Shown piece by piece: positions 7,041-52,790 of a DNA stretch of 64,000 bases. Each line of letters opens with the position of its first letter. The stretch's first letter is position 1. The translations under genes and the position numbers were made by a program. This DNA is from Diprion similis (lineage: Eukaryota; Arthropoda; Insecta; Hymenoptera; Diprionidae), in contig NC_060113.1 in assembly GCF_021155765.1 (NCBI RefSeq), forward strand, positions 8,695,001 to 8,759,000, written 5' to 3'. Under the pieces are notes generated by a model. It saw only the letters and a list, made by a program, of their open reading frames with translations. It did not search any database and was not told where the DNA came from.

Positions 7041-7420
7041 CATAAAGATATAATCACTTTTTCAGGTGACTTATAGGCCAATTTGACTATCTTATCCGGT
7101 TAGACTCTTTTTCTGCCCAAATGTGATAATAGTGTTGAAAGAGTTTCAATTAAAGACTATCATTCAGGGACTACTGCATAAATCATTACAGAAAGAAGTT
7201 GTTTCGACGTACTCTTACTTACTGTAATATTCAACTTTAAACATCCGACTCAATTACTGCACGATTTCTTGAATGTGACTATTCAGCATATATTGAACAT
7301 TTTTTGAAAGATTTCACCAAATCAGATATGCATGTTTGACGAGATTAAAAATACATTTTTTTTAATAAAAATTATTGGGCACAACGAAATCCGTTTTAAC
7401 TGCTTAGAACTAATCTCTCT

Positions 7421-7614
7421 GACAGTAGTGATGCAATGCCGGTTATGCGTATAGATTCCTGTTACCGACACTTACGGACACCTTTCCTAGACTCAAACCC
7501 TTCTCCGCGATGATGTCACAGTCCGCTATACCGACCGAAGGTTAAAATGGCGCTACATATTTATCGACCGAAGGTTCAAGCTTACCGACAGTGTTATCAG
7601 CCGAAGGTCAAAAT
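7421..7614 (+). repeat. Left terminal inverted repeat of the ORF-bearing element
   Basis: Matches 9060-9256 in inverted orientation up to the word AAGGTCAAAAT at 7604-7614. Internally it repeats a roughly 20-bp unit of the form TACCGACCGAAGGTCAAAAT two to three times; one more related unit follows just inside the TIR near 7625-7650. Such iterated subterminal words are often protein-binding sites in mobile elements; that role is inferred. Confidence 0.75.
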
Positions 7615-7856
7615 CTTGCTGCTTTACCGACCGTTTTATCTACCGGAGGTCAAAATCACGCGGCTTTACCATCAGTCTCACTATCATCCCCCCTACCGAT
7701 GGTCGAGGTGTAGCGGAGACGTAAATCCTTCTATTCCCAGCGTACCCATCTCAGGAATGTTCCGTATAACCTTGAGCGGCTTGCGGTGTAATATTTGACA
7801 CCCTACATTTCACAATTAACAGTTCCGAGAATTGTTTTTTCGTTAATCCGATATGA

Positions 7857-8093
7857 ACCGTGTGACATTTTCTTCTCGAAAACTGCTTGTGAGGTCGAAA
7901 AACCAGTATGATTTAACCACGTGACATTCGATAATTAATGGTTCCGAGAATGGCTGGGGTGAACCACGTGACATTCCGTTCCCACGACATCGAACCACGT
8001 GACGTTCTGTTCGAGTCCAAAGTCCTGTGCGTTATCAACCGCGTGACGTTCTTATCAAAAGTCTAAAGTCCGATGTGATACCAACCTCGTGAC
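7857..8093 (+). promoter_or_regulatory. Six iterated CACGTGAC-type boxes upstream of the small ORF
   Basis: The consensus AACC-N-CGTGAC-R-TTC occurs around 7857 (CGTGTGAC), 7918 (CACGTGAC), 7965 (CACGTGAC), 7996 (CACGTGAC), 8039 (CGCGTGAC) and 8086 (CTCGTGAC), all in the same orientation and spaced about 30-60 bp. Three contain a perfect CACGTG E-box, the class bound by bHLH proteins. They end about 45 bp before the TATA box, which suggests an upstream enhancer, or iterons for an element-encoded protein. Confidence 0.6.
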
Positions 8094-8137
8094 ATTCTTT
8101 CTCCCCACCAAGTTTCAAATGCATGTAGTGGGGATGT

Positions 8138-8171
8138 TATAAAAGTCAGACCTGAAAACTTCGTCGTCAGT
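8138..8171 (+). promoter_or_regulatory. TATA box and initiator for the small ORF
   Basis: TATAAAAG at 8138-8145 is followed by the arthropod initiator TCAGT at 8167-8171. The presumed +1 A (8169) lies 31 bases after the first T of the TATA box, the canonical spacing. The first ATG used by the ORF is about 177 bases downstream. Confidence 0.6.
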
Positions 8172-8345
8172 CTGAAGTTGTTCTTCCTGCAGTGAATAGT
8201 GCTCCGCAACAATAACGTGAATTCAAAGAGCGACTTGACCTGTTCATCAAGAATATTGTGGAAGTGAAACATCTGCTGAAAATCAAATCTGAACTGAACC
8301 AACTAACAAGAGAATTTGAGCAAATACTAATTGACAGTGACAATC

Positions 8346-8690
8346 ATGGATTTCTCAAAATTAAACAAGGTCGCACGGCTGATGACATTTCTCCCGTTGA
8401 AAAAGCTTACGGACCTCGAAGCCTACTTCGAGTACCGAGTCAGCGGAATTCGTAAAGTTAAGACGAAATTCGGTGATAAAATAGTTCTGGATTTGGAAGG
8501 TTCGTTTACGGTTTTTCTACCGAATCGATTGACGAAATCCCTCCAGGAAGATGAAGATCTGTTCCAGAAGATGTTGGCAGCAAGTAATGACACTCTGTTG
8601 CGTCTGCGGTACCTGGGTGGGCCATATAATCAACTCGAATTCGTTTACGTGGAATTTCAGTGTCACATACACACGTGTTATACCTTGTAA
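8346..8690 (+). CDS. Small protein with possible OB-fold, cargo of TIR element
   Basis: A 114-codon uninterrupted ORF. The first ATG in frame is at 8346 (MDFSKLNKVARL). The core reads like a compact beta-rich domain: a Y-R-V-S-G-I-R-K-V-K-T-K-F-G-D-K-I-V strand pattern near residues 31-48, then G-S-F-T-V-F-L-P-N-R and, near the C-terminus, R-Y-L-G-G-P-Y-N-Q-L-E-F-V-Y. From memory, similar small proteins with a T-K-[FY]-G ... V-F-L-P-x-R ... L-x-Y-x-G signature are common, uncharacterised and multicopy in insect genomes, and the strand pattern suggests a single-stranded-nucleic-acid-binding OB fold. That is inference, not demonstrated function. Upstream are a TATA/Inr promoter and iterated E-boxes; AATAAA lies 21 bases after the stop. 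The absence of stops or frameshifts in an otherwise decaying region suggests recent arrival or selection. Confidence 0.65.
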   Translation: MDFSKLNKVARLMTFLPLKKLTDLEAYFEYRVSGIRKVKTKFGDKIVLDLEGSFTVFLPNRLTKSLQEDEDLFQKMLAASNDTLLRLRYLGGPYNQLEFVYVEFQCHIHTCYTL

Positions 8691-8710
8691 TAGTACTAAG
8701 TTTAATATTG

Positions 8711-8716
8711 AATAAA
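8711..8716 (+). terminator. Poly(A) signal AATAAA after the small ORF
   Basis: AATAAA lies 20 bases after the stop codon that ends at 8690, in the sense orientation. It closes a compact transcription unit inside the TIR element. Confidence 0.6.
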
Positions 8717-9059
8717 ACGATTGAAATTATATGTATTTGTCACTCAATACTAAGCCATCCTGCCCACCTTTAATTCAACCAATTTTTATATCTTGTAATA
8801 GTAATTCGAATTGAGTTTTAAAAACCTAAGCAAGAGCTATTTTTAAATTTATTCTATTCATAGCTAAGGTAAAAGTGTGAAATAAATTCATGAATATTGA
8901 AAAAACAAAAAAAAAACTTTATTCATAAATGTTTTAAGGTTACGTTTCTAACGAGTGTGCCAATTGCTTGAACGGTTTCGTTGTACTTAAAATATTTGAA
9001 TCTCAGAATCTTTCCCTCTTCCTTGGGTAAAACAAATTTGATCTCTCTAAATTCAAACA

Positions 9060-9256
9060 ATTTTGACCTTTGGCTAATAACACTGTCGGTAAGGTTGAAC
9101 CTTCGGTCGATAAATAGGTAGCGCCATTTTGATCTTTGGTCAGTACAGCGGACTGTAACGTCATCGCGAAGAAGGGTTTGAGTCTAGGGAAGATGTCGGT
9201 GAGTGTCGGTAACGGGAATCTATACGCAGAACCGGCATTGTATTACTACTTCTGTC
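9060..9256 (-). repeat. Right terminal inverted repeat of the ORF-bearing element
   Basis: Inverted copy of 7421-7614, with about 85-90% identity by eye, including the mirrored words AACCTTCGGTCGATAAATA, CAGCGGACTGTAACGTCAT and TTTGAGTCTAGG. The outermost bases read CTACTTCTGTC. Confidence 0.75.
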
Positions 9257-16400: not shown

Positions 16401-19400
16401 ATTGATAGGTTCCACTGACGAGGACAAGATATCATCTCCACAGTAAACGTTTAGCTGCAAGTAATATGTACAGAGTTATGGATAAGAGCATAATACAATT
16501 TCTTTCTTACATTTGTCCAAAATAGTGATTGCCAATTACCATTAGTAACATATTCTGTAATGATATGCAGCCACGAACGACTTTTGTATAAGAAGAAAAC
16601 CTTCTCTCAATCCCATATATTATCATCATAATTATCAAGAGTATTATATTTTATTCAGAAAATCTAACTTTGACTTGTGGATAAACTAAAAAACTGAAAA
16701 TAAAAAATTGTTACAACCTATTTTTTTATTCCTGAAATGCAACATTTCATCAACTCAAAGCTCTCGTATAGGGGGCGTGAAGTTGAATTTTAGGTATAGT
16801 AATATTTAAAAGGTAAATATCGACATTCTATAGCTATTCAGACAACTTTTTCTTAAGACCTGGTCAAAATAGTGAAAGAATCAGAAAAAGGTGCAAAAGT
16901 CGTCATTTTCGACGTAGCGCATGATTCAGAAAGAACTGAAATAATTCGTATGAGTAATATACAGCGAAAAGCAACGAAATGACAAAAAAAAAGGTTTTGG
17001 TACGTGGATTAGCTTTCGAAATATAACAATTTTCAACTTTTGTGAATTTCGTTCGGAATCTTGGGATTAGCCCCTTACACCGAAATTAATTTACGTAAGA
17101 GGAATTTTGGTAATGCATACACATTATTTTTTTCACAAGGATCAGTAATTTGAGTCACTTGTCATTTTTGTCATTTTTGTACCCCCTGGAGAGAGTGGAG
17201 AGGGTAATTGAGTTATGAACCGCTAGGCATATGTTTTTATGACCTAAGAAACATTTCTGAACGGATAGTTTAAAAATCCCAAAGAAGGGGCATTTGGCCC
17301 CTCTTAATCAGGGATACCATATTGTAAATTGCATACCTTCTGGTCACACGGTTACCACTAATCCATATTGAAACTACCACATCCCCACATATATATGTAT
17401 ACTATACACGATATGAACTGTATAAATAAAAAAATGCATGCCACTTGTACTAGCAAGTACGTGGTTTATAGATTAAGAAACGATACATCTAGGACTAGCG
17501 TCTTAAAATATTTGCAAAGCCAATGTATTATCGTTAAAAAAGACATCAAGCGCGGAATAGTACCAGTATATAATGGAATCTGAGGGGGTAATTACGACAT
17601 TAAAATTTTCGTAAGCTGAATAACATTTAGTACGTATTTTTATTATTTCAAAATAATCATTCGCAAATGATCATAAGAGTTGCCAAAAACGAAACAACTA
17701 ACTCAGTGGATCGAAGTGATCAGTAATTATAGTTGGAAATAAAGAATTCACCGTCTGCAACAATAGATATGAAAAGTTGGAAATAAAGAATTCACCATCT
17801 GCAACAATAGATATGAAAAGCTGTAACTAGATGGGAGATCGCAAATACGTGTTCCCAAGGAGTCAAATAAAATGGTTTATAAAACTAAGTAGACGAATAT
17901 AACTAATGCGATATGATAAGTTGGTTTAGAATGCATAATGAAATAAGCATCTGCCACATTAACAAAAGGTAAATAAAATTACGGGAATCACTTCACACCA
18001 AGTATTTAATTTTACTTACATAATGTAGATACTGGGAGCAAAAAAAAACAGAAATTCGTTTGTTAATAATAGCATTATATATGGAGATTCGAACAAATAT
18101 CGTTACATGATCATCAGATTTACTCACCTTTTTTCTATTTTCATCAAAAAGTGCTATCAGACTTTCCCTGGCAGAGTGAAATGGATTGGATGCCATCAGT
18201 GACCGCATGTAAAAGTAAACGGCGTCTAATTTTCGTCTCTGTAACACAAAATACATCGAGCAAATATGTATAACGACTATGGTATGAAATTATCAAATCT
18301 CGAAAATTAAAAAATATTATACTTACAGCACAATATGCCAAAACTGCTAATTGGTTGTATGGCCGCCCATTTTTAGGATTAATCTGCTGAGCCTTGACGT
18401 ACCAGCTGCGGAATACAATTATGAACTTTCTTAACTTTTTCGCTTGAATATAAACAGCTATTCACTGTGAACTTTTGCATGTATAGGTACATTAATAGGT
18501 ACTCAGAACACATCGTAAAATATAAATTCATTGATTCTGTTCAGTGATTTCGCTTTTGGAATACAATTTTATAGTTGCATAAACCAATATTTACACATAT
18601 ATTCAAATTAGAAGTATCTATTAATCACATTTTAATTCAGAGGAGAGTTACCTTAGAATTGATTTTAATGTACCGTATTGTTTAGAATATAAGCCGAGGT
18701 GTTTTGTCGTTGACAGCACACACTAAAATCATCCTCGTCTTATACGTGGACCTATCTTCTGTGCGGGTAACTAAGAAAAATACTTTAAAATACTGTCTCA
18801 CAATTTGGGGTCGTCTTATATGCTATACCGGTTTATACTCGGAACAATACGGCAAATACAAAATATTATGTGACATCATATTATGGGAGTACAGTGATCA
18901 CAAATAAGTTGCAAGGTGTCAGAAATAAGAAAGATCACTTTACAACTGAGAATACTTACTGCCTTGACTTTCCGTAGTTGGTGGTTTCATTAACCTGTTC
19001 TTTGTATCTAGCCAAATCTCCAAGATATAGAAATATCTTCTGTGCACTGACCAAAGCCAAGCCAACAGGTCCGAGTCCTTTGGGTAACGATGGAGATACC
19101 AGAAACGTGTCCAATTTAAAGTTGTAACTACTTTCAAGGACAGTCAGAAGATTTTCTAAATATACCGTTCCCTCGTCAATGATATCTATCATTATTTTCT
19201 TATAATGATCACGTCCTTCCGAGTTCTCTTTAGGTATACCCTTCCGTAACATTTCAATCATATTGTGAAATAATATCTTCCAAAAGTGTTGCTCCACATT
19301 TTCAGCTTGACAAAACTTGATATCTGTTTTCAATAGCATCTGTAAACTGTCTTGTAAGAACCGCCGAATATAAGAAAGCCTCTCCCAGCTAGCCGGAAAA

Positions 19401-22400
19401 CCACCTGAACCTAAAATCCACTGTAGCTCCAAATCTGCCCGGCCTATGTCCAAAAGTAAATAAGGATTCTTGGCTGATCGGAAACTGCAATTGAAGCATA
19501 AATCAAAAAATTACATCAGAGAGATGTAAGTGCAAAACATGGAGCACAAATATATTATTGTTTTTTGAAGATTAAAGTTTTGAATAAACAAAAACTCATT
19601 TACAATGTACCTTTCTGAATTAGGATTATACCACGGTGGTCGCATATTACCGAACTCGTCAGTAACGTAGAGTGGCATACTATCCGATTGAGGTGCTTCA
19701 AAACTGTGACCTGGACTTGCAAGATGAGATTGGAAAACAGGTGCACCAGAGGACTGACTTTGAGCTTCATTTTCCCTGTTAATGAAAAAGGAAAGAGTGA
19801 CTGAGACTCACAAAATTTAGTGCGACTTATCACAGAACAATAAAAATTAATGCATTCAGATTACTCAAGACTGAATCGTTACCTAGCCAAAGCAGCTCTA
19901 CTTCCAGGTGACGTAATGATGATTGGTTTGTTGGGATTATTAGGGTCGAAGAGAGTTCTCTGTTGCTGAGATGAATTTTGTCTCGCTGGGGTGACACTGG
20001 GTGGCGAATGGCTGGTTTCAGGTAAAAATAGAACACCAGGTGGCTGAGCATTGTTATAACTTGGTTGAGAATTACTTTGTTGCAACACAGAATTAGGTGG
20101 TGAATTTGACAGTGGAACAGAATGAGGAGATTGTTGACGAGTGTGAGTAGTCAGTGAAGATGGAGTGCGCCGACCCTCATCTGAATCACATATCGAAGGC
20201 TTTCTTCCCGCCCTCCAGTTTTCATCTGTATGCGAGTCCTGACCTCTGGAGAGAAAGCTAATACTCAAAAGTTTTAATCAAGTTGCCAACTAAGGGACAA
20301 AACCAAACAGCTTTTAGTGCTAGTTACAGTATTCCGTAGTGGAATTTCTAATTACCTGGTTCTGTGAAAATCATCAGGATTCCGGCTACTGCCTCTGAAA
20401 TTTCTTTCTTTACTTGTTTCACGACTCCTTTGGGCATTGTTACTCTGAGTATGATCCCTGTTATACCGCCTGCTGGCACCAGCGGCCTTCTGATTGCTAT
20501 TATAATTGTCATGATCTCTATTCTGTTGGTTCTTATCACGTTCTCGACTATTTTCTTTTACTTTATCCCTGCTTAAACTCCTATGAACAGAAGCAAGAAA
20601 ACGCGTGAATTAATGATACAATTTACACATTTTTTACTTCCAATTATTCTCTATTAATACCTATCCGATTGGTTGAAGTGTGAAATTTTCAGTTCTCACA
20701 AAGTATCGAAACACTTTACCTGTCACCAGTGTGTGCTCTTCCGCGTCTCTTTTTCTTCGTTCGATTCCTTCCTTTAGATGCCTCAGCAGGTGGTTGACTA
20801 CCAGTTACCCCACTCGTATTATCACGAAGACTAATCATCGAAGAGCTACGACACAGCTGTTCAGCCTCAAGTTTCTCAGTTAATTCTACTTCTTCACTCC
20901 AATCCTACGAAAATAAAATCTACAGTTAATGATTTTTTTATATACTGTGAAATTGGTAATGAGACCATCATTTCTGAAAGAAATCTGTACATTTGTTAAT
21001 TGATGAAATTTCATTTTCATTTCTCATTTAACTAACCAACGTATGTTCCGAAGACATATCTGGCAATGGACTGAATGGTTCGCTTTTAGATGGACTAAGA
21101 TTCAGCATTTGTTTGTGATCCAATCTTTCCTGCATGGAGCTTGAAGGTTCGCTCGAGTTGTTGCCACGTCGTCTACAAAAAAAAAGATTAGCTAATTAGA
21201 AATCAGCTGTGAATGCAATCAAGGTATACAAGGGAATGAACAAATTTAATTAAATTGATTAAACATAATATTGCTATTACGTCTGATAGGTATGCTGCTG
21301 CGACGTGGTAGGAGAAGATGCCCCTTTCCTCTGTCTTTGATAGTTAGGAGGTGAGTTACGTCTGTTCCTGTTTGGTATTGACGTTGCTGGTGAAATTGCT
21401 GGAGGTGGAGGAGGCATCGTGAAGCTATCCATGCGGCTCAAACTCTCTACGCTCGTGTACATTGTACTATTACTACCTCGACGATCATAGGATCTGAGAA
21501 AAAAAAATTCAGCTTTGATAAAATTCACCCTATTATAATGTAAGAACATAGTTGTGACATCTTTGAGTAATTTTGTTCTCCAAGATCGAAGCTGAATTAA
21601 ATTCAGTACTTTGAATTATTTTTATCACCAGATTCACATGACACAGCACTACTTCATGTTATGCAAAGTGACACTCGCGTACTAAAAAGCTTGCATCGAA
21701 TAAGCATGCAAGATTTCATCAAACTTCCTACTTTCAAAAATGAAAATAACTGTTGTGATTACATTAAATTTTTGACTAAATTTTAGTTACTTATGTTCGA
21801 TAAGTAATGTTTGGAAAGGTTCAAAGTGAACATCCAAAAGTATTAAAATATTTTCGCTCTCTTATAGAGTGTCTATCAGCTAAGCCTCATAAGTTGATTG
21901 TTCAAAAGATAGTAAGAACAGGCTAAAAAACGAGATTATGAAATGAAATAAATGTAGAAACCAATAAAAGAAGTATTGCTAAACATTCTTCAAATGAATT
22001 CCCGAGTGACTCAAAAATTGGACTGAATGTTTCCATACGATAACAAGCCGGAAAAACAGTTTGTTCGCGATACTTTTTATCATTATGAAAAGGAATAAGT
22101 CTGACGGTCTGTACGATAAACTTCCGTGATGACCGCGAAAACGGTCGGAAATGAAAAAATTTGGTAAAAAACAGAACATGGCAGTTTTTCATGGCCATCA
22201 TTTGATTGTAAAGTCCTGTAGGTTTTAAATTTTTTCATTGAGCCGTTTCCGAGATGATCGCGGGAGTTTATTGGCAAATCAGTAAATCGACAGACCGACA
22301 GACCGACAGATTGCTATCCAGACAGACAGTTTTCTAAAAATCTGTTTTCTGGATTCTGGAGGTTCAAAAACGTAAAGATTTGTCGAAATTAGTAAAAGTG

Positions 22401-27218: not shown

Positions 27219-27486
27219 CCCTAGATTTCATTCATAAAGGACCATCTCTGTGTATAGAAACAATAATAAAAAGTGTCCGTGAAGTAGAGTACACACTGAT
27301 CTCTAGTCTATAGTAGAGATCAGTGAGTACATGAATACATGTGTATGAAGTGGCGTTGCTACAGCAAAAGTCCCACAAAGCGCCAATCACATATAATCCG
27401 ATAGAACCCTATGGAATATCCACAGTCTTTACATGCAAGTTAGGAAACTCCTATGGTGGGGGGAGTCTCACCTAGTGTGTGATCAG
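27219..27486 (+). repeat. Repeat module A, copy 1 (80 bp upstream of SMG6 ATG)
   Basis: Nearly identical to 47423-47690 in the same orientation, from CCTAGATTTCATTC to GTGTGATCAG. It holds a 28-bp palindrome (CTGATCTCTAGT...ACTAT-AGTAGAGATCAG) around 27298-27326. No ORF. It begins 80 bases upstream of the SMG6 start codon, so the gene's 5' UTR or core promoter probably abuts or includes it. Confidence 0.85.
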
Positions 27487-27869
27487 TCTCGAATTCACGA
27501 TTTGGCGGCTAAGTTTGCTGCAATCTGGAAGTACGGTGCAGGGGAGACAGAAGTATGTATTCGTTATCTGTTTTACACGTGGTAGTACAGTGTAAGACAG
27601 AGAACAAATACCTACTTCCATCTCTCCGCACCGCACGTCTAGATCTCAGCAAGCTTAGCGATGAAATTGAGACTCCCCTCACAACTCAAAAATGCTGTTC
27701 CCAGACTTGTATGAAAACCCGTACGCCCGTATGTTGTACCGACTATTATCATTATATATCATTACTACCAACTTACCTAACCCTAAGTACGAGAATCTTG
27801 TAACCAGAAAGTATTGAACTACTACCTAACTATTTACAATATCCCTAGATGGAAGTGATGACTCAGGGT
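27487..27869 (+). repeat. Repeat module B, copy 1
   Basis: 383 bp, matching 47035-47417 in inverted orientation with about 99% identity by eye. It contains an internal hairpin (27532-27648: GGGGAGACAGAAGTATGTAT... against ATACCTACTTCCATCTCTCC). It ends exactly at the 8-bp CTCAGGGT that is duplicated on the far side of the adjacent hAT-type MITE. Its 82-codon open frame is kept in both copies, but near-identity at the DNA level explains that. Confidence 0.85.
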
Positions 27870-28279
27870 CACAGTCTTACATACAGGGTCGTGCAACGAA
27901 GGTAGTGGGGGTGGTTCATTTCACGGGCGGTTATTTATTTCACTTTGTGGCCGCCAGGACGGCGTTGTGATCGTAGGATGGATAATCAACGCGTGCGCAA
28001 TACAGCGCCAACCTAATAATAATATTATTGTTGTTATTACAAGCAATAAATTTTTATGAATGAAAGTAGTTAATACAGTATGATGCACGCGCTGATTTTT
28101 GGTTATATGCTTCATTTCAAATACAATTTTGGTGGCACATTTTCATCCCTACCCTACGTCATCCCTAGATAGCAGTGCCGCGACATGGCTATTTCAAACA
28201 CTTAAAACACGGACAACAAGAGAACCACGCCGCTCTGTAGAAAATTGGCTTCGTTGCAAGACCTGTATGTAAAACCGTG
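27870..28279. mobile_element. hAT-type MITE, copy 1, with perfect 8-bp TSD
   Basis: A 410-bp element with ends CACAGTCTTACATACAGG and CCTGTATGTAAAACCGTG and further mirrored CAACGAAG/CTTCGTTG. It is flanked by a perfect 8-bp duplication CTCAGGGT (27862-27869 and 28280-28287). It is about 97% identical by eye to 62334-62742. No transposase. An 8-bp TSD and short imperfect TIRs fit the hAT superfamily. Confidence 0.88.
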
Positions 28280-32269: not shown

Positions 32270-32710
32270 CAGTTTTCTCTGAGAGTCATAGGTTATATAG
32301 CAGGTTTTGTCGTTAGAAGTTTCAAAGAAATTTTGCTGTGTGAGATATGTATTGATGCTTTGTTTGGAGATGAAAACCACGTAAAATCAATTCTAATCAA
32401 AATGAAAACCCGCGGTGGCCTGCATCTTGCGTCGAAAGATGTTATTCGCATTTATAAGGAAGCGGAAAAAATTGTAAGGTGCACCTTAAAAGAAAGTGGT
32501 GGTAGGCTTATGAACAACAAATTCACTGAGCCACATCATCTTGTCAGCCGGGCACTTTCAAAATTTACAGATTTTTATGTATTATTTGAGAATATCCGGC
32601 CACATGTGTACGACCAAAATTTTCTGGAAAATCATGACATACATTTGGCAAAAGCTATACTGTCAAAGTATATCAAGATAAGATTATTCTACATCACAAC
32701 TAGCTGTTAA
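32270..32710 (+). pseudogene. P-element/THAP9-like transposase, C-terminal remnant
   Basis: The open frame runs from a TGA at 32267 to the stop at 32710. It contains V-I-G-Y-I-A-G-F-V-V-R, C-E-I-C-I-D-A-L-F, K-T-R-G-G-L, S-K-D-V-I-R-I-Y-K-E-A-E-K-I-V-R and a terminal S-K-Y-I-K-I-R-L-F-Y-I. That order and spacing is characteristic of the C-terminal region of P-element/THAP9-type transposases. No N-terminal THAP finger or catalytic part is seen upstream, and a stop precedes the frame, so this is a truncated copy and not an active gene. Confidence 0.75.
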
Positions 32711-47015: not shown

Positions 47016-47034
47016 ATCTGTATGTAAGACTGTG

Positions 47035-47417
47035 ACCCTGAGTCATCACTTCCATCTAGGGATATTGTAAATAGTTAGGTAGTAGTTCAATACTTTCTGG
47101 TTACAAGATTCTCGTACTTAGGGTTAGGTAAGTTGGTAGTGATGATATATAATGATAATAGTCGGTACAACATACGGGCGTACGGGTTTTCATACAAGTC
47201 TGGGAACAGCATTTTTGAGTTGTGAGGGGAGTCTCAATTTCATCGCTAAGCTTGCTGAGATCTAGACGTGCGGTGCGGAGAGATAGAAGTAGGTATTTGT
47301 TCTCTGTCTTACACTGTACTACCACGTGTAAAACAGATAACGAATACATACTTCTGTCTCCCCTGCACCGTACTTCCACATTGCAGCAAACTTAGCCGCC
47401 AAATCGTGAATTCGAGA
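47035..47417 (-). repeat. Repeat module B, copy 2 (inverted relative to copy 1)
   Basis: Reverse complement of 27487-27869, equal length (383 bp) and almost identical. Its outer end carries the same 8-bp word (ACCCTGAG on plus) followed by the same hAT-type terminus (CTGTATGTAAGACTGTG, 47018-47034), but the sequence beyond that is different from the MITE found at copy 1. Confidence 0.85.
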
Positions 47418-47422
47418 CTAGT

Positions 47423-49198: not shown

Positions 49199-51053
49199 AT
49201 GAGTGAAAATCAAGAAATAAGAAAAAAACGTTCGTACAAGTGGTGTTTCGTTCCACTGTGTCAAAATACCAGTTTATCGGCACGCTCGAAAATATTTGTA
49301 CCCGTACCAAAAGGTGAGGTGAGGAAGAAATGGTTTGAACTAGCTCGGCGGAGCGACTTAACCTCACTCCAAAACGCTTTATACTGTTGCGAAGATCACT
49401 TGGACGTAAGTTAAAATTTTGTTTGACTTTATAACAGTCATTTTACTTGAGTGAATCAAGATAATGTATCTGTAACGAATAAATTACACTTTCAGTATAG
49501 CTGATCCTAGCTGTCATCTAACTCTTTTTGTATATATAGTTACAGGAATGTTTGGAGAACTATAGAAGAGTTGTGGAAGACAAAACTGCCTCAGTAAGAC
49601 TAAAAACCGGTGCGTTACCTCATAAATTTGACTGTCAGCCTGACAGACAACGCGCGTTTTCGAAACCTGTGCGACCTGGTGTGCGTAAACGTGAGACGAG
49701 AAAGGTTCTTCAAGAAATAGAATCAGAAGCGCTTTCGAAGATAGAAAACATTGATCCAACACACACAGCTGGGGACTCGGTTGCTTCAAATCTTGTGAAT
49801 CTCAACTTGGTCGAAGAGGACATTGTGAACATCGGTCATGACGAAGCTGTAGAATGTGGATATGTGTTCGCAGACCCCATTTCACCTTCTATAAGTGCAG
49901 TAGCTGAAACTTTACCTGTACAAAAAGATGTTTGTGTGCAAGTGTGCCTTTTACCTAAGCGGAAGCCAAAGTTTAGAAGTAAAGCTTCTAGCTGCGTTCC
50001 TCTCATGCAAGATGCGAGTTGTTCGCCCATAAAGATAAAAACAAGTGTAGGCCTTCTAAAAATTCAACAAGAATCTTCAGTGACGACATCCAGCAGTACC
50101 ACATGCAACTTGGACGATACATTGGAAAATTGTACAGAGTACTTGCCTTCTGATGAAACTAGTGAAGAGGCTGTGAAACAAAGTGTTTCTGCGCGAAAAC
50201 AAGAGATCCGAAGAATGAAACTTTTGATTATTGCTAGTAAACCGAAGATGTACTTGGGAATTCCAGATAATGGCTTTTTTATTATAGAATTACTTCACAA
50301 TGCAACAGGAATCAAAGTTGAGGATATTTGTTTAACGCTATCTAAAATCAAACTCAATGACACGTTTGCGAGGCTTGGCGACGAGTTCGGTATCAGTAGT
50401 GGCAACGCCAACACAATATTTAGATCCCTTTGCTGGCACGCTTTCTAAAACAGTTAATCGTTTGGCCTTCAGCAGCTTCGATAAAGTTGAACTTACCGTT
50501 ACCATTTCGCGCTAGATATAGTCATGTCCAATCTATAATTGATTGTTTTGAAATCGAAATCCAGAAACCTGGCAACGCGATTCACCAGAGTGTCACTTGG
50601 TCGGAGTATAAAAAATGTAATACTCTGAAATATCTTATATCCTCTACACCGGATGGAACAATTAATTTTATATCCCAAGGCTTTGGAGGCAGAACGACAG
50701 ACGCTGTGATTGTACAAGAAAGTGAATACCTGAATATACTACCACCAAATTGTGCAGTTATGGCTGATCGAGGCTTCAAACACATAGAACCACACTTACA
50801 GAAAAGTGGATGCACTCTAATCCGGCCACCAAGTGTTGCAAGTACTGCAAAGCCAACCAAGGCAGAAGTTATGGAAACTAGACGTATCGCTAGCCTCAGA
50901 ATCCACATTGAAAGAATTATCCGTAGAATTAGAGAATACGCCATACTAAAACCACATGCAGTAGTTCATTACTTAACCTTTGATATATTGGATGAAATTG
51001 TAACCATTGCCGCAGGATTAATAAATTTACAAACACCTATAATCAAACAATAA
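49199..51053 (+). pseudogene. THAP-domain DDE transposase of ISL2EU, frameshifted
   Basis: Exon 1, 49199-49405 (69 codons), starts MSENQEIRKKRSYKWCFVPL and holds the THAP finger C-x4-C...W...C-x2-H (C16, C21, W46, C64, H67) before a GTAAGT donor. Exon 2 begins at 49546, keeps phase 0 and supplies the A-L-P-H-K-F-D end of the THAP domain, followed by an acidic linker and the helical part of a DDE_Tnp_4 domain (D-E-F-G-I-S-S-G-N-A-N). The frame stops at 50446-50448. The next 207 codons in another frame (overlapping from 50430) continue the domain with V-W-P-S, I-I-D-C-F-E-I (first Asp), M-A-D-R-G-F (second Asp) and R-I-H-I-E-R-I-I (Glu). One frameshift near 50420-50445 therefore separates the halves; all three catalytic residues survive. 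A genuine lesion or a sequencing error are both possible; an intron is unlikely because the frames overlap. Confidence 0.88.
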
Positions 51054-51230: not shown

Positions 51231-52790
51231 TCATTGCTTTTCTTTTGCAGCTCTGAGAATAAGAGGGTATATATTCTCCTTCCAAAAAGCGATGGCCTTT
51301 TCTATGAGATCAAGTACAAAGTCTTCGTCATAGTCTACACAGATCAATCTAATTTTATGACTCGTTTCGAAGTCATGATTGGCTATGCAGAAAAAACCCT
51401 TTTTTACCTGTTTCATAAACATCTGAAGCTGAATTTGGGCCAAAAACTTTTTTGCAATTTGGTGATTCGCTGCGATGTATCTAGATTCCGCTTTACGAGT
51501 CATTGGACACTTTATCTCGACTACGAAATCATCTCCTACTCCATCAGGTGACGCACCAATAACAGGGAACCTCGCTCCGACCAGCAATCCACAATCTTCT
51601 ATGTTTGTTTTCAACATCTCTTTCAGTAATTTGATAACTTCTTTCTCTAATCTTCGTCCTCGTTCCATTGCTTCGGTATCCCTGATTTTTGAACTTCCGA
51701 TGACCTGCTCTACCAAGGATCCGCTTTTCGTCTTGCAATGAGCCATTTCATATATCCGAGATGCCGTGATTCGTCCATATCGTAACTCATTCCATAATTT
51801 TGATTCACTTTGAGTTTGGGTTTCTCTTCTAGCTCGGATGCATTGATCCACAGTCATCGTGTTGCTTGCGAAGCTTAAAAAACTTTGTACTTCGGTGTTA
51901 TCTGAACAGCTACAGAATTGGAGCATAATATTATGCAACGATAAAACCTTCGGTGAATCGTTGTTTATAAAATGCCTTGAGATCTGACAGTCAAATTGTC
52001 TTTTCCGCAGTTCATTTAGCACAGTTTTTAAAAAGTCTGTATTATCCGGTAGATCTGGATCAGCTCTGCGTGGCCGCAAATCTTTGGCTTTCAACGATCG
52101 AACATTCGCTGCAACTTGAGCTAAGCGGGGCTTCTTCCAGTAGCATACAGTAGCTGTCGGCTCAGGCTCTTCGCTACGCCGGTGGACCCACATTAAAAAA
52201 GCGATAGTGTGTTTACAACCACCTTGAAACAAAAGCTATATTAGTAATTGGTAATCTACGTTCGAATTCAATAATACCTTACCTGCTGATGCCGCACAAT
52301 CCTCACAGGTCACCCGATCAATCGATTCGTTTTTTTCGTCAACCATCATTGAGACATTATATGCTTTGCTATTCACCCTGTGCTCTGGACACACTTTTCC
52401 ACGAACATCACAGAAACTGCCTTCTCTTCTAAGCTCTACGTACCCAACTGCAGCATCACCATAATCCTCTCTTTCAGCTCTGTAGGTAGAACAATTTTTA
52501 TAAGTTATGGTATGCCACTAAATTTGCAATACGTTCCTGTCATTACACTATACATATGTATAAATATAGAGTCTAAGTAATCAAATTCAACTGTTTATAT
52601 TGTTATCAACCCCAATTTTCGATCGTAAAATGTAAAGTTAATGATTTTGAAACATAACCTACCTTCGAGCTTTGACACCGCTGGTTTCGGCAACATTGAA
52701 ATATTCACTTTGGGAGAAAAAGTCGGTAACCATTAGTACGGTTACTTTCGGGAGATTGTCTGATTGTGCTTTAACAAAGCCGAGATTCAT
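51231..52790 (-). CDS. YqaJ-type nuclease/recombinase of the ISL2EU element
   Basis: Three exons, 52790-52663, 52479-52283 and 52222-51231, sum to 1,317 bp (438 aa); phases close at Arg and Gly codons. Start MNLGFVKAQSDNLPKVTVLM. Residues about 98-115 carry C-E-D-C and G-G-C-K-H-T, a SWIM-like zinc-binding set. The C-terminal half is a YqaJ/lambda-exonuclease-like fold: R-Y-G-R-I-T-A-S-R, E-R-G-R-R-L-E, A-S-P-D-G-V (Asp), V-V-E-I-K-C-P (Glu-x-Lys) and A-Q-I-Q-L-Q-M. These are the PD-(D/E)xK metal-binding residues. In ISL2EU elements this second protein is presumed to process DNA ends; its role is not established here. The gene faces the transposase convergently with a 177-bp gap. It is uninterrupted and keeps its motifs, unlike the transposase. 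Confidence 0.88.

What the first reader, a model, noticed from the sequence alone, without database searches (positions are those of the whole stretch)
7421..9256. Compact TIR element with a lone small ORF and its own promoter
Seen: about 195-bp inverted repeats, iterated CACGTGAC boxes, TATA box and initiator at canonical spacing, one intact 114-codon ORF and AATAAA, all in 1.84 kb, without a transposase. The protein has a T-K-F-G ... V-F-L-P-N-R ... Y-L-G-G signature that I recall only from uncharacterised multicopy insect proteins. Inference: a selfish unit built around a nucleic-acid-binding (possibly OB-fold) protein, either a non-autonomous transposon with cargo or an integrated virus-like replicon. 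This is the strongest candidate for an undescribed system.
Basis: partly seen in the sequence, partly recalled or inferred. Interest (0 to 1): 0.75.

Follow-up and report, generated by a model that had tools for sequence, protein, structure and literature searches.

The report
Shrunken remnant of a Polinton element
This short unit is not a new kind of mobile element but a heavily deleted copy of a Polinton (Maverick), a known large virus-like element that is common in this genome; it keeps both ends and one small gene, which lies just inside one end of the full-size element.

Summary
In detail: 191-nt inverted arms, CACGTGAC boxes, TATA/initiator, a 114-codon frame and AATAAA. But the unit is a non-autonomous, internally deleted Polinton/Maverick. 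It has the published Maverick end motif (AGT)2//(ACT)2 and a 6-bp target duplication (5 of 6 bases). The same TIR bounds relatives of about 9-16 kb; one (C2:89,628-103,601, perfect 6-bp duplication) carries PolB, integrase, ATPase-like and double-jelly-roll capsid genes, and the same small gene beside its TIR. Between the window's ORF and right TIR lie two scraps of the PolB end, so the unit is one intact end, scraps of the other end and 191 bp of its TIR. Its main deletion junctions were found once in the genome. The small protein (ancestrally 102 aa) was under purifying selection between lineages, but 4 of 6 close copies are broken. No known family was found; the OB fold is unproven. A by-product is more interesting: in a biased sample of 17 loci, seven are fold-back palindromes; five of these have 6-bp duplications matching at 5 or 6 positions (two perfect), so they probably integrated as palindromes, like snap-back defective viral genomes.

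The parts
7418..7423 (.). left copy of the 6-bp target-site duplication (tctgac)
   Evidence: Right copy is tctgtc, 5 of 6. Chance of 5 or more of 6 at an assumed 36% GC is about 0.007.
7424..7614 (+). left terminal inverted repeat, beginning AGTAGT
   Evidence: 171/191 to the right arm; 86-92% to the 38 other places listed (40 of 172 candidates scored there).
7424..8111 (+). TIR region with box array, shared with both ends of a full-size Polinton
   Evidence: 88% over 692 bp to the PolB end of C2:89,628-103,601 (L055); its small-gene end (L057) is 74% over 1243 bp.
7855..8102 (+). array of six CNNGTGAC boxes, three exactly CACGTGAC; probable upstream promoter elements
   Evidence: (D1); 14 of 15 copies have at least one exact box; function inferred.
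8138..8172 (+). TATAAA (8138) and TCAGTC initiator-like site (8167)
   Evidence: 29-nt spacing in all 12 of 15 copies that have the TATA; no transcript data.
8346..8690 (+). 114-codon ORF; codons 1-102 (8346-8651) are the conserved protein, the last 12 are run-on past the lost ancestral stop
   Evidence: 150 matches to the protein in the genome, all 150 scored of 189 candidates.
8711..8716 (+). AATAAA polyadenylation signal
   Evidence: read directly; function inferred.
8943..8968 (-). 26-nt scrap of the PolB end
   Evidence: 26/26 to L055:2767-2792.
8970..9061 (-). scrap of the PolB end
   Evidence: 85% over 93 bp to L055:2479-2571, inside frame L055:2376-3095. That frame corresponds by its translation to the upstream part of the 626-codon frame L044:3-1880, which carries DNA_pol_B_2; on its own it matches Endonuclease_7, not PolB.
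9060..9250 (-). right terminal inverted repeat, ending ACTACT
9251..9256 (.). right copy of the target-site duplication (tctgtc)

Best explanation
The unit is a non-autonomous, internally deleted member of the Polinton/Maverick class. Shown: it has Polinton ends, a near-perfect 6-bp duplication, one complete element end (TIR, box array, TATA/initiator, small gene), two scraps of the PolB end in the expected orientation, and 191 bp of the other TIR; a full-size relative with PolB, integrase, ATPase-like and capsid genes shares those ends in the same genome. Inferred: a full Polinton integrated by its integrase, giving the 6-bp duplication, and two or more deletions removed the rest before or after integration. 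The small gene survives because it is the first gene inside that TIR and has its own TIR-proximal promoter. In the intact element it probably acts in genome replication, perhaps as a single-strand DNA-binding protein for protein-primed strand displacement; this last step is a guess. The window copy cannot move by itself.
For: Ends AGTAGT//ACTACT and 6-bp duplications: of 14 end pairs readable, 7 perfect, 5 with 5 of 6 (the window among them), 2 without (3 and 4 of 6); three further pairs were unreadable there. The same end motif and 6-bp duplications are reported for vertebrate Mavericks (PMC8097293, passages). Full relative C2:89,628-103,601: DNA_pol_B_2 E 1e-12, DJR capsid E 3e-114 (both above Pfam's cut-off), rve integrase E 3e-5 and Pox_A32 E 0.02 (both below cut-off). 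Sister copies give rve E 4e-12 (above cut-off) and Pox_A32 E 1.5e-4 (21.8 bits against a cut-off of 22.8). Small gene 66% identical, next to its TIR. PolB scraps. 150 integrase matches in the genome, all that were scored of 444 candidates. Purifying selection between lineages A and B: median dN 0.19, dS 2.2 over 28 pairs of open copies.
Against: The window duplication is 5 of 6, not perfect, and 2 of the 14 readable pairs have none. No full-size copy of the window's own sublineage (A) was traced end to end: three of the five other A copies run into EXO-like and capsid genes (L002, L005, L006), L003 is rearranged and L004 showed no further gene in its flank. Nothing shows whether the deletions preceded integration.
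Confidence: 0.94

Rival explanations
1. The unit arose before integration as a defective (DI-like) genome that used a helper Polinton's polymerase and integrase, by the same kind of faulty replication that may give the fold-back palindromes seen elsewhere. (A version of the best explanation, not an alternative to it.)
For: Both TIRs and a 5/6 duplication flank the shortened form. Palindromic derivatives in the same genome carry perfect 6-bp duplications (C14:2,441,620-2,451,791 and C13:11,714,212-11,727,568), so defective forms can integrate.
Against: The window unit is not palindromic, its junctions were found once, and separate junctions fit stepwise decay after integration equally well. I saw no clear shared homology beyond a few bases at the junctions.
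Confidence: 0.3
2. The compact unit is its own propagating non-autonomous family.
For: Compactness, paired TIRs and an open reading frame.
Against: In one search, 8 of 8 candidates were scored: apart from the window itself none extends more than two bases across the junctions at 8943 and 9060. In the other five A-type copies no right TIR was seen in the flank held after the match (1.5 kb in L002-L006), and three run on into capsid-side genes.
Confidence: 0.03
3. The TIRs and ORF are a chance assembly.
For: None found.
Against: 18 of the 20 best ORF copies fetched have the TIR in their flank, and promoter parts recur: 12 of 15 with TATA, 14 of 15 with an exact box.
Confidence: 0.01

Closest known systems
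Polinton/Maverick virus-like elements (vertebrate Mavericks, PMC8097293, passages; reported abundant in a braconid and in Leptopilina boulardi, PMC6035795, passages)
   Same: (AGT)2//(ACT)2 ends, 6-bp duplications, TIRs; relatives with PolB, integrase, ATPase-like and DJR capsid genes.
   Different: The window copy lacks all core genes except scraps of the PolB end. The small TIR-proximal gene matched no Pfam or PHROGs family convincingly; whether it corresponds to one of the uncharacterised vertebrate Maverick genes (PM, PZ, PW) was not tested.
SSBs of protein-primed viruses (phi29 SSB, Bam35 SSB; PMC8276246, listing and passages)
   Same: Functional analogy only: small protein encoded in a genome whose PolB is taken, from knowledge of the class, to be protein-primed.
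   Different: No sequence match; fold not established. The same paper notes that the adenovirus DNA-binding protein has no clear OB fold, so an OB fold is not a given for this role.
Snap-back defective AAV genomes (PMC8235507, search listing and abstract start only)
   Same: Inverted arms around a central loop, as in the palindromic Polinton derivatives.
   Different: Different virus class; the window unit itself is not a fold-back.

Membership tests
Polinton/Maverick | (AGT)2//(ACT)2 termini and TIRs | tested here: met
   AGTAGT at 7424, ACTACT at 9250, 191-nt arms; motif from PMC8097293 (passages).
Polinton/Maverick | 6-bp target-site duplication | tested here: met
   Window only 5 of 6; of the 14 pairs readable, 7 perfect, 5 with 5 of 6, 2 without; perfect also in two palindromes.
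Polinton/Maverick | protein-primed PolB gene | tested here: met
   In relatives (DNA_pol_B_2 E 1e-12; protein priming itself not tested); in the window only scraps.
Polinton/Maverick | retroviral-type integrase | tested here: met
   In relatives (rve E 4e-12 in L044; E 3e-5, below cut-off, in L056; 150 matches); absent from the window unit.
Polinton/Maverick | DJR major capsid protein and packaging ATPase | tested here: met
   In relatives: DJR E 3e-114. ATPase weaker, just below Pfam's cut-off: Pox_A32 E 1.5e-4 in a sister copy, E 0.02 in C2:89k. Absent from the window unit.
Autonomous Polinton (window copy itself) | own polymerase and integrase | tested here: not met
   No such ORF between 7424 and 9250.
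OB-fold single-strand DNA-binding protein | OB fold | tested here: inconclusive
   Single-sequence model, mean pLDDT 51.8, pTM 0.32, strand/helix order compatible with OB but too weak; fold search not run, machine busy; no convincing profile match.
OB-fold single-strand DNA-binding protein | binds ssDNA | not testable with these tools
   Needs a binding assay.
Propagating non-autonomous (MITE-like) family | many copies sharing the same deleted structure | tested here: not met
   One copy of the junctions among 8 matches.

The most novel reading that the evidence does not exclude
Polintons in this genome replicate as linear protein-primed virus-like genomes that throw off defective, helper-dependent forms, both internally deleted (the window unit) and snap-back palindromic, and these integrate with 6-bp duplications. 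They also carry a previously unnamed small TIR-proximal gene, possibly the missing single-strand DNA-binding protein of the class.
Probability: 0.3. Interest if true: 0.62.

Novelty: new member of a known kind. Interest (0 to 1): 0.33.

Why it matters
It removes a candidate 'new system' and gives a concrete ancestor for a gene that looks orphaned when seen alone. The useful leads are the conserved TIR-proximal gene of these Polintons, whose selection pattern points to a function in the intact element, and the fold-back derivatives. If confirmed, the latter would be integrated footprints of a replicating linear Polinton genome, bearing on whether Polintons replicate as viruses.

Tried and rejected
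Rejected: chance assembly; an independent compact family; a kinship of the small protein with ribosomal eL13 or KDO8P synthase suggested by the profile search (best whole-sequence E 0.00076 for one eL13 chain, but in the three alignments shown the best single stretches have E 1.2-4.6 and cover 28-36 residues); the eight Pfam families, each matched by one of 19 members at E 0.0087-0.2, and the four PHROGs, each by one member at E 0.043-0.094.

Led nowhere: relatives in IMG/VR viral contigs, five scans, none confirmed (for the small protein, 77 for the capsid protein); structure prediction from the single window sequence; Foldseek (not completed). Papers: 'DUF8207' 0 papers; Polinton + OB-fold 5 papers, 4 listed, none by title or abstract start on a Polinton OB protein; Polinton + palindrom 44 papers, 20 listed, none by title or abstract start on palindromic Polintons; Polinton + non-autonomous and similar, 18 papers and 85 papers with 12 listed, none by title on compact Polintons; Polinton/adenovirus + defective/inverted duplication 14 papers, 10 listed; Maverick/Polinton with foldback, hairpin, inverted duplication 3 papers, none by title on this. 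These searches do not prove absence from print. The label DUF8207-like for the 307-aa ORF is recall; Pfam gave nothing convincing for it. The labels PX-like, penton-like and EXO-like are recall (Adeno_PX E 0.04-0.08, below cut-off; no Pfam match for the penton-like or EXO-like frames). The recalled adenovirus-like protease frame was not confirmed (no Pfam match).

Full report
WHAT WAS CHECKED. The window is C9:8,695,001-8,759,000 of a 269-Mb genome in 60 contigs with abundant (TTAGG)n repeats, which by general knowledge fits an arthropod; the species is not known to me. Corrections: the element proper is 7424-9250, and the conserved protein is 102 aa; the window copy runs on for 12 codons past the lost ancestral stop.

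THE ENDS SAY POLINTON. The window element begins AGTAGT and ends ACTACT, with tctgac/tctgtc on either side. In one search both ends of 14 inverted TIR pairs can be read, the window included: 7 have perfect 6-bp duplications, 5 have 5 of 6, and 2 have none (C10:3406k 3 of 6, C2:660k 4 of 6); three further pairs had an unreadable end (C13:10856k, C13:11031k, C14:2791k). At an assumed 36% GC, 5 or more of 6 would match by chance about 0.7% of the time per pair. Vertebrate Mavericks are reported to have (AGT)2//(ACT)2 ends and 6-bp duplications (PMC8097293, passages seen).

THE RELATIVES SAY POLINTON. DNA of the unit finds 97 matches in its own genome (40 of 223 candidates scored) and the protein 150 (150 of 189 scored), so both are lower bounds. 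The fullest relative examined, C2:89,628-103,601, has in order: TIR, PolB, integrase, a 307-aa-family ORF of unknown role, ATPase-like, PX-like, penton-like, DJR capsid protein, EXO-like ORF, the small gene, TIR (the -like labels are recall). Pfam supports PolB (E 1e-12) and capsid (E 3e-114) above its cut-offs, integrase (rve, E 3e-5) and ATPase (Pox_A32, E 0.02) below them; sister copies do better (rve E 4e-12; Pox_A32 E 1.5e-4, one bit under the cut-off). The TIR region of the window, boxes included, is 88% identical to that relative's PolB end over 692 bp and the window is 74% identical to its other end over 1243 bp. The integrase piece has 150 matches (all scored of 444 candidates); in about 35 the frame is open for 300 codons or more with no stop inside the match.

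HOW THE WINDOW UNIT IS BUILT. From 7424 to about 8943 it follows the small-gene end of A-type copies (83-89% to L002-L005 in the pieces aligned, 76% to L006; L004 only to element position 1367). Then come 26 nt and about 92 nt that match the PolB end of L055 in inverted orientation and in the right order, then 191 bp of the other TIR. So two or more deletions, probably three, removed nearly all of a full element. The junction region 8915-9085 has eight matches in the genome; apart from the window itself none extends more than two bases across the junctions at 8943 and 9060 (one 33-nt match, C10:1,188,750, spans the gap between the two scraps, so that gap may be a difference between lineages rather than a deletion). 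I saw no clear long homology at the junctions.

THE SMALL GENE. Copies fall into groups A (window), B (about 66-71%), C (about 42-48%) and D (about 36-43%) by identity to the window protein (group names are mine). Among the six A copies, 2 are open over the full length (window and L004) and 4 are broken or truncated (L002, L003, L005, L006). Of 17 distinct B loci read, 15 are open, one of them without ATG and one two codons shorter; 2 are broken (L034, L036). Open copies only: A versus B median dN 0.19, dS 2.2 (28 pairs, dS near saturation); within A one pair, pN/pS 0.44; summed pN/pS within B 0.645 (91 pairs), within C 0.29 (28), within D 0.94 (21). This fits selection while elements were active and weaker or no constraint after integration; taking open copies only biases towards constraint. 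Over the 15 A/B copies examined, TATA is present in 12, TCAGTY in 15 and an exact CACGTGAC in 14. No Pfam, PHROGs or PDB sequence relative is convincing. A single-sequence AlphaFold2 model has mean pLDDT 51.8 and an order of strands, helix and strands that would suit an OB fold but cannot establish it. Adenovirus DBP, which serves a protein-primed genome, has no clear OB fold (PMC8276246, passage), so the role does not require one.

BY-PRODUCT: FOLD-BACK DERIVATIVES. In 17 loci examined for inverted arms (10, 6, plus the window), seven are palindromes with long arms: C5:3981k (2644 bp, 100%), C12:1300k (3373 bp, 99.9%), C14:2093k (at least 1364 bp, 99.7%), C14:2438k (4007 bp, 99.1%), C13:11714k (more than 4.2 kb, 99.8%, with a complex centre), C13:10856k (about 2.3 kb, 99%), C2:660k (about 3.2 kb, 98-99.97%). 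C7:1807k (748-bp arms in a 3.1-kb element) I left among the non-palindromes. Ordinary copies have arms of about 400-640 bp at 87-97%; one D-type copy, C14:2346k, has 1317 bp at 91.5%. The sample is biased: several loci were chosen because two small-gene or TIR hits faced each other. Duplications at the palindromes: 6 of 6 at C14:2438k and C13:11714k, 5 of 6 at C5 and C12 and at C14:2093k (T-rich and with a right end that is not clean), 4 of 6 at C2:660k, unreadable at C13:10856k. C14:2438k sits inside another Polinton between its capsid and EXO-like genes, and C5:3981k has PX-like sequence in the same orientation on both flanks, so the inversion does not extend into the flanks there. The simplest reading is integration as a palindrome made by snap-back replication, as described for AAV defective particles (PMC8235507, listing only); assembly artefacts were not excluded with reads.

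VERDICT. Real, well observed, but a known kind: a decayed, non-autonomous Polinton/Maverick. Most of the interest lies outside the window, in the fold-back derivatives and the unnamed TIR-proximal gene.

Noticed in passing
C14:2,441,620-2,451,791; C13:11,714,212-11,727,568; C5:3981k; C12:1300k; C14:2093k; C13:10856k; C2:660k (loci L038-L041, L103-L105, L009-L012, L046-L048, L108-L109, L114-L115): Palindromic (fold-back) Polinton derivatives with arms 98-100% identical around a central stretch; two have perfect 6-bp target duplications.
   Followed up: partly
window 49540-51053 (+) and 51231-52235 (-): HTH_Tnp_4 (E 2e-5, below cut-off) and DDE_Tnp_4 (E 1e-36) ORFs facing a YqaJ/viral alkaline exonuclease-like ORF (E 7e-13); possibly one transposon carrying a recombination exonuclease.
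   Followed up: partly
window 27485-27886 and 47018-47419: 402-bp inverted copies at 99.25% identity, possibly a recent repeat family.
   Followed up: no
window 18956-19510 (-): Est1 domain exon (E 7e-7), probably a host SMG6-like gene (name recalled).
   Followed up: no
window 32270-32710 (+): THAP9 C-terminal domain fragment (E 4e-9).
   Followed up: no
C14:2,346,991-2,355,376 (L106, L107): A D-type element whose 1.3-kb arms (91.5%) include the small gene, so it is present at both ends.
   Followed up: no
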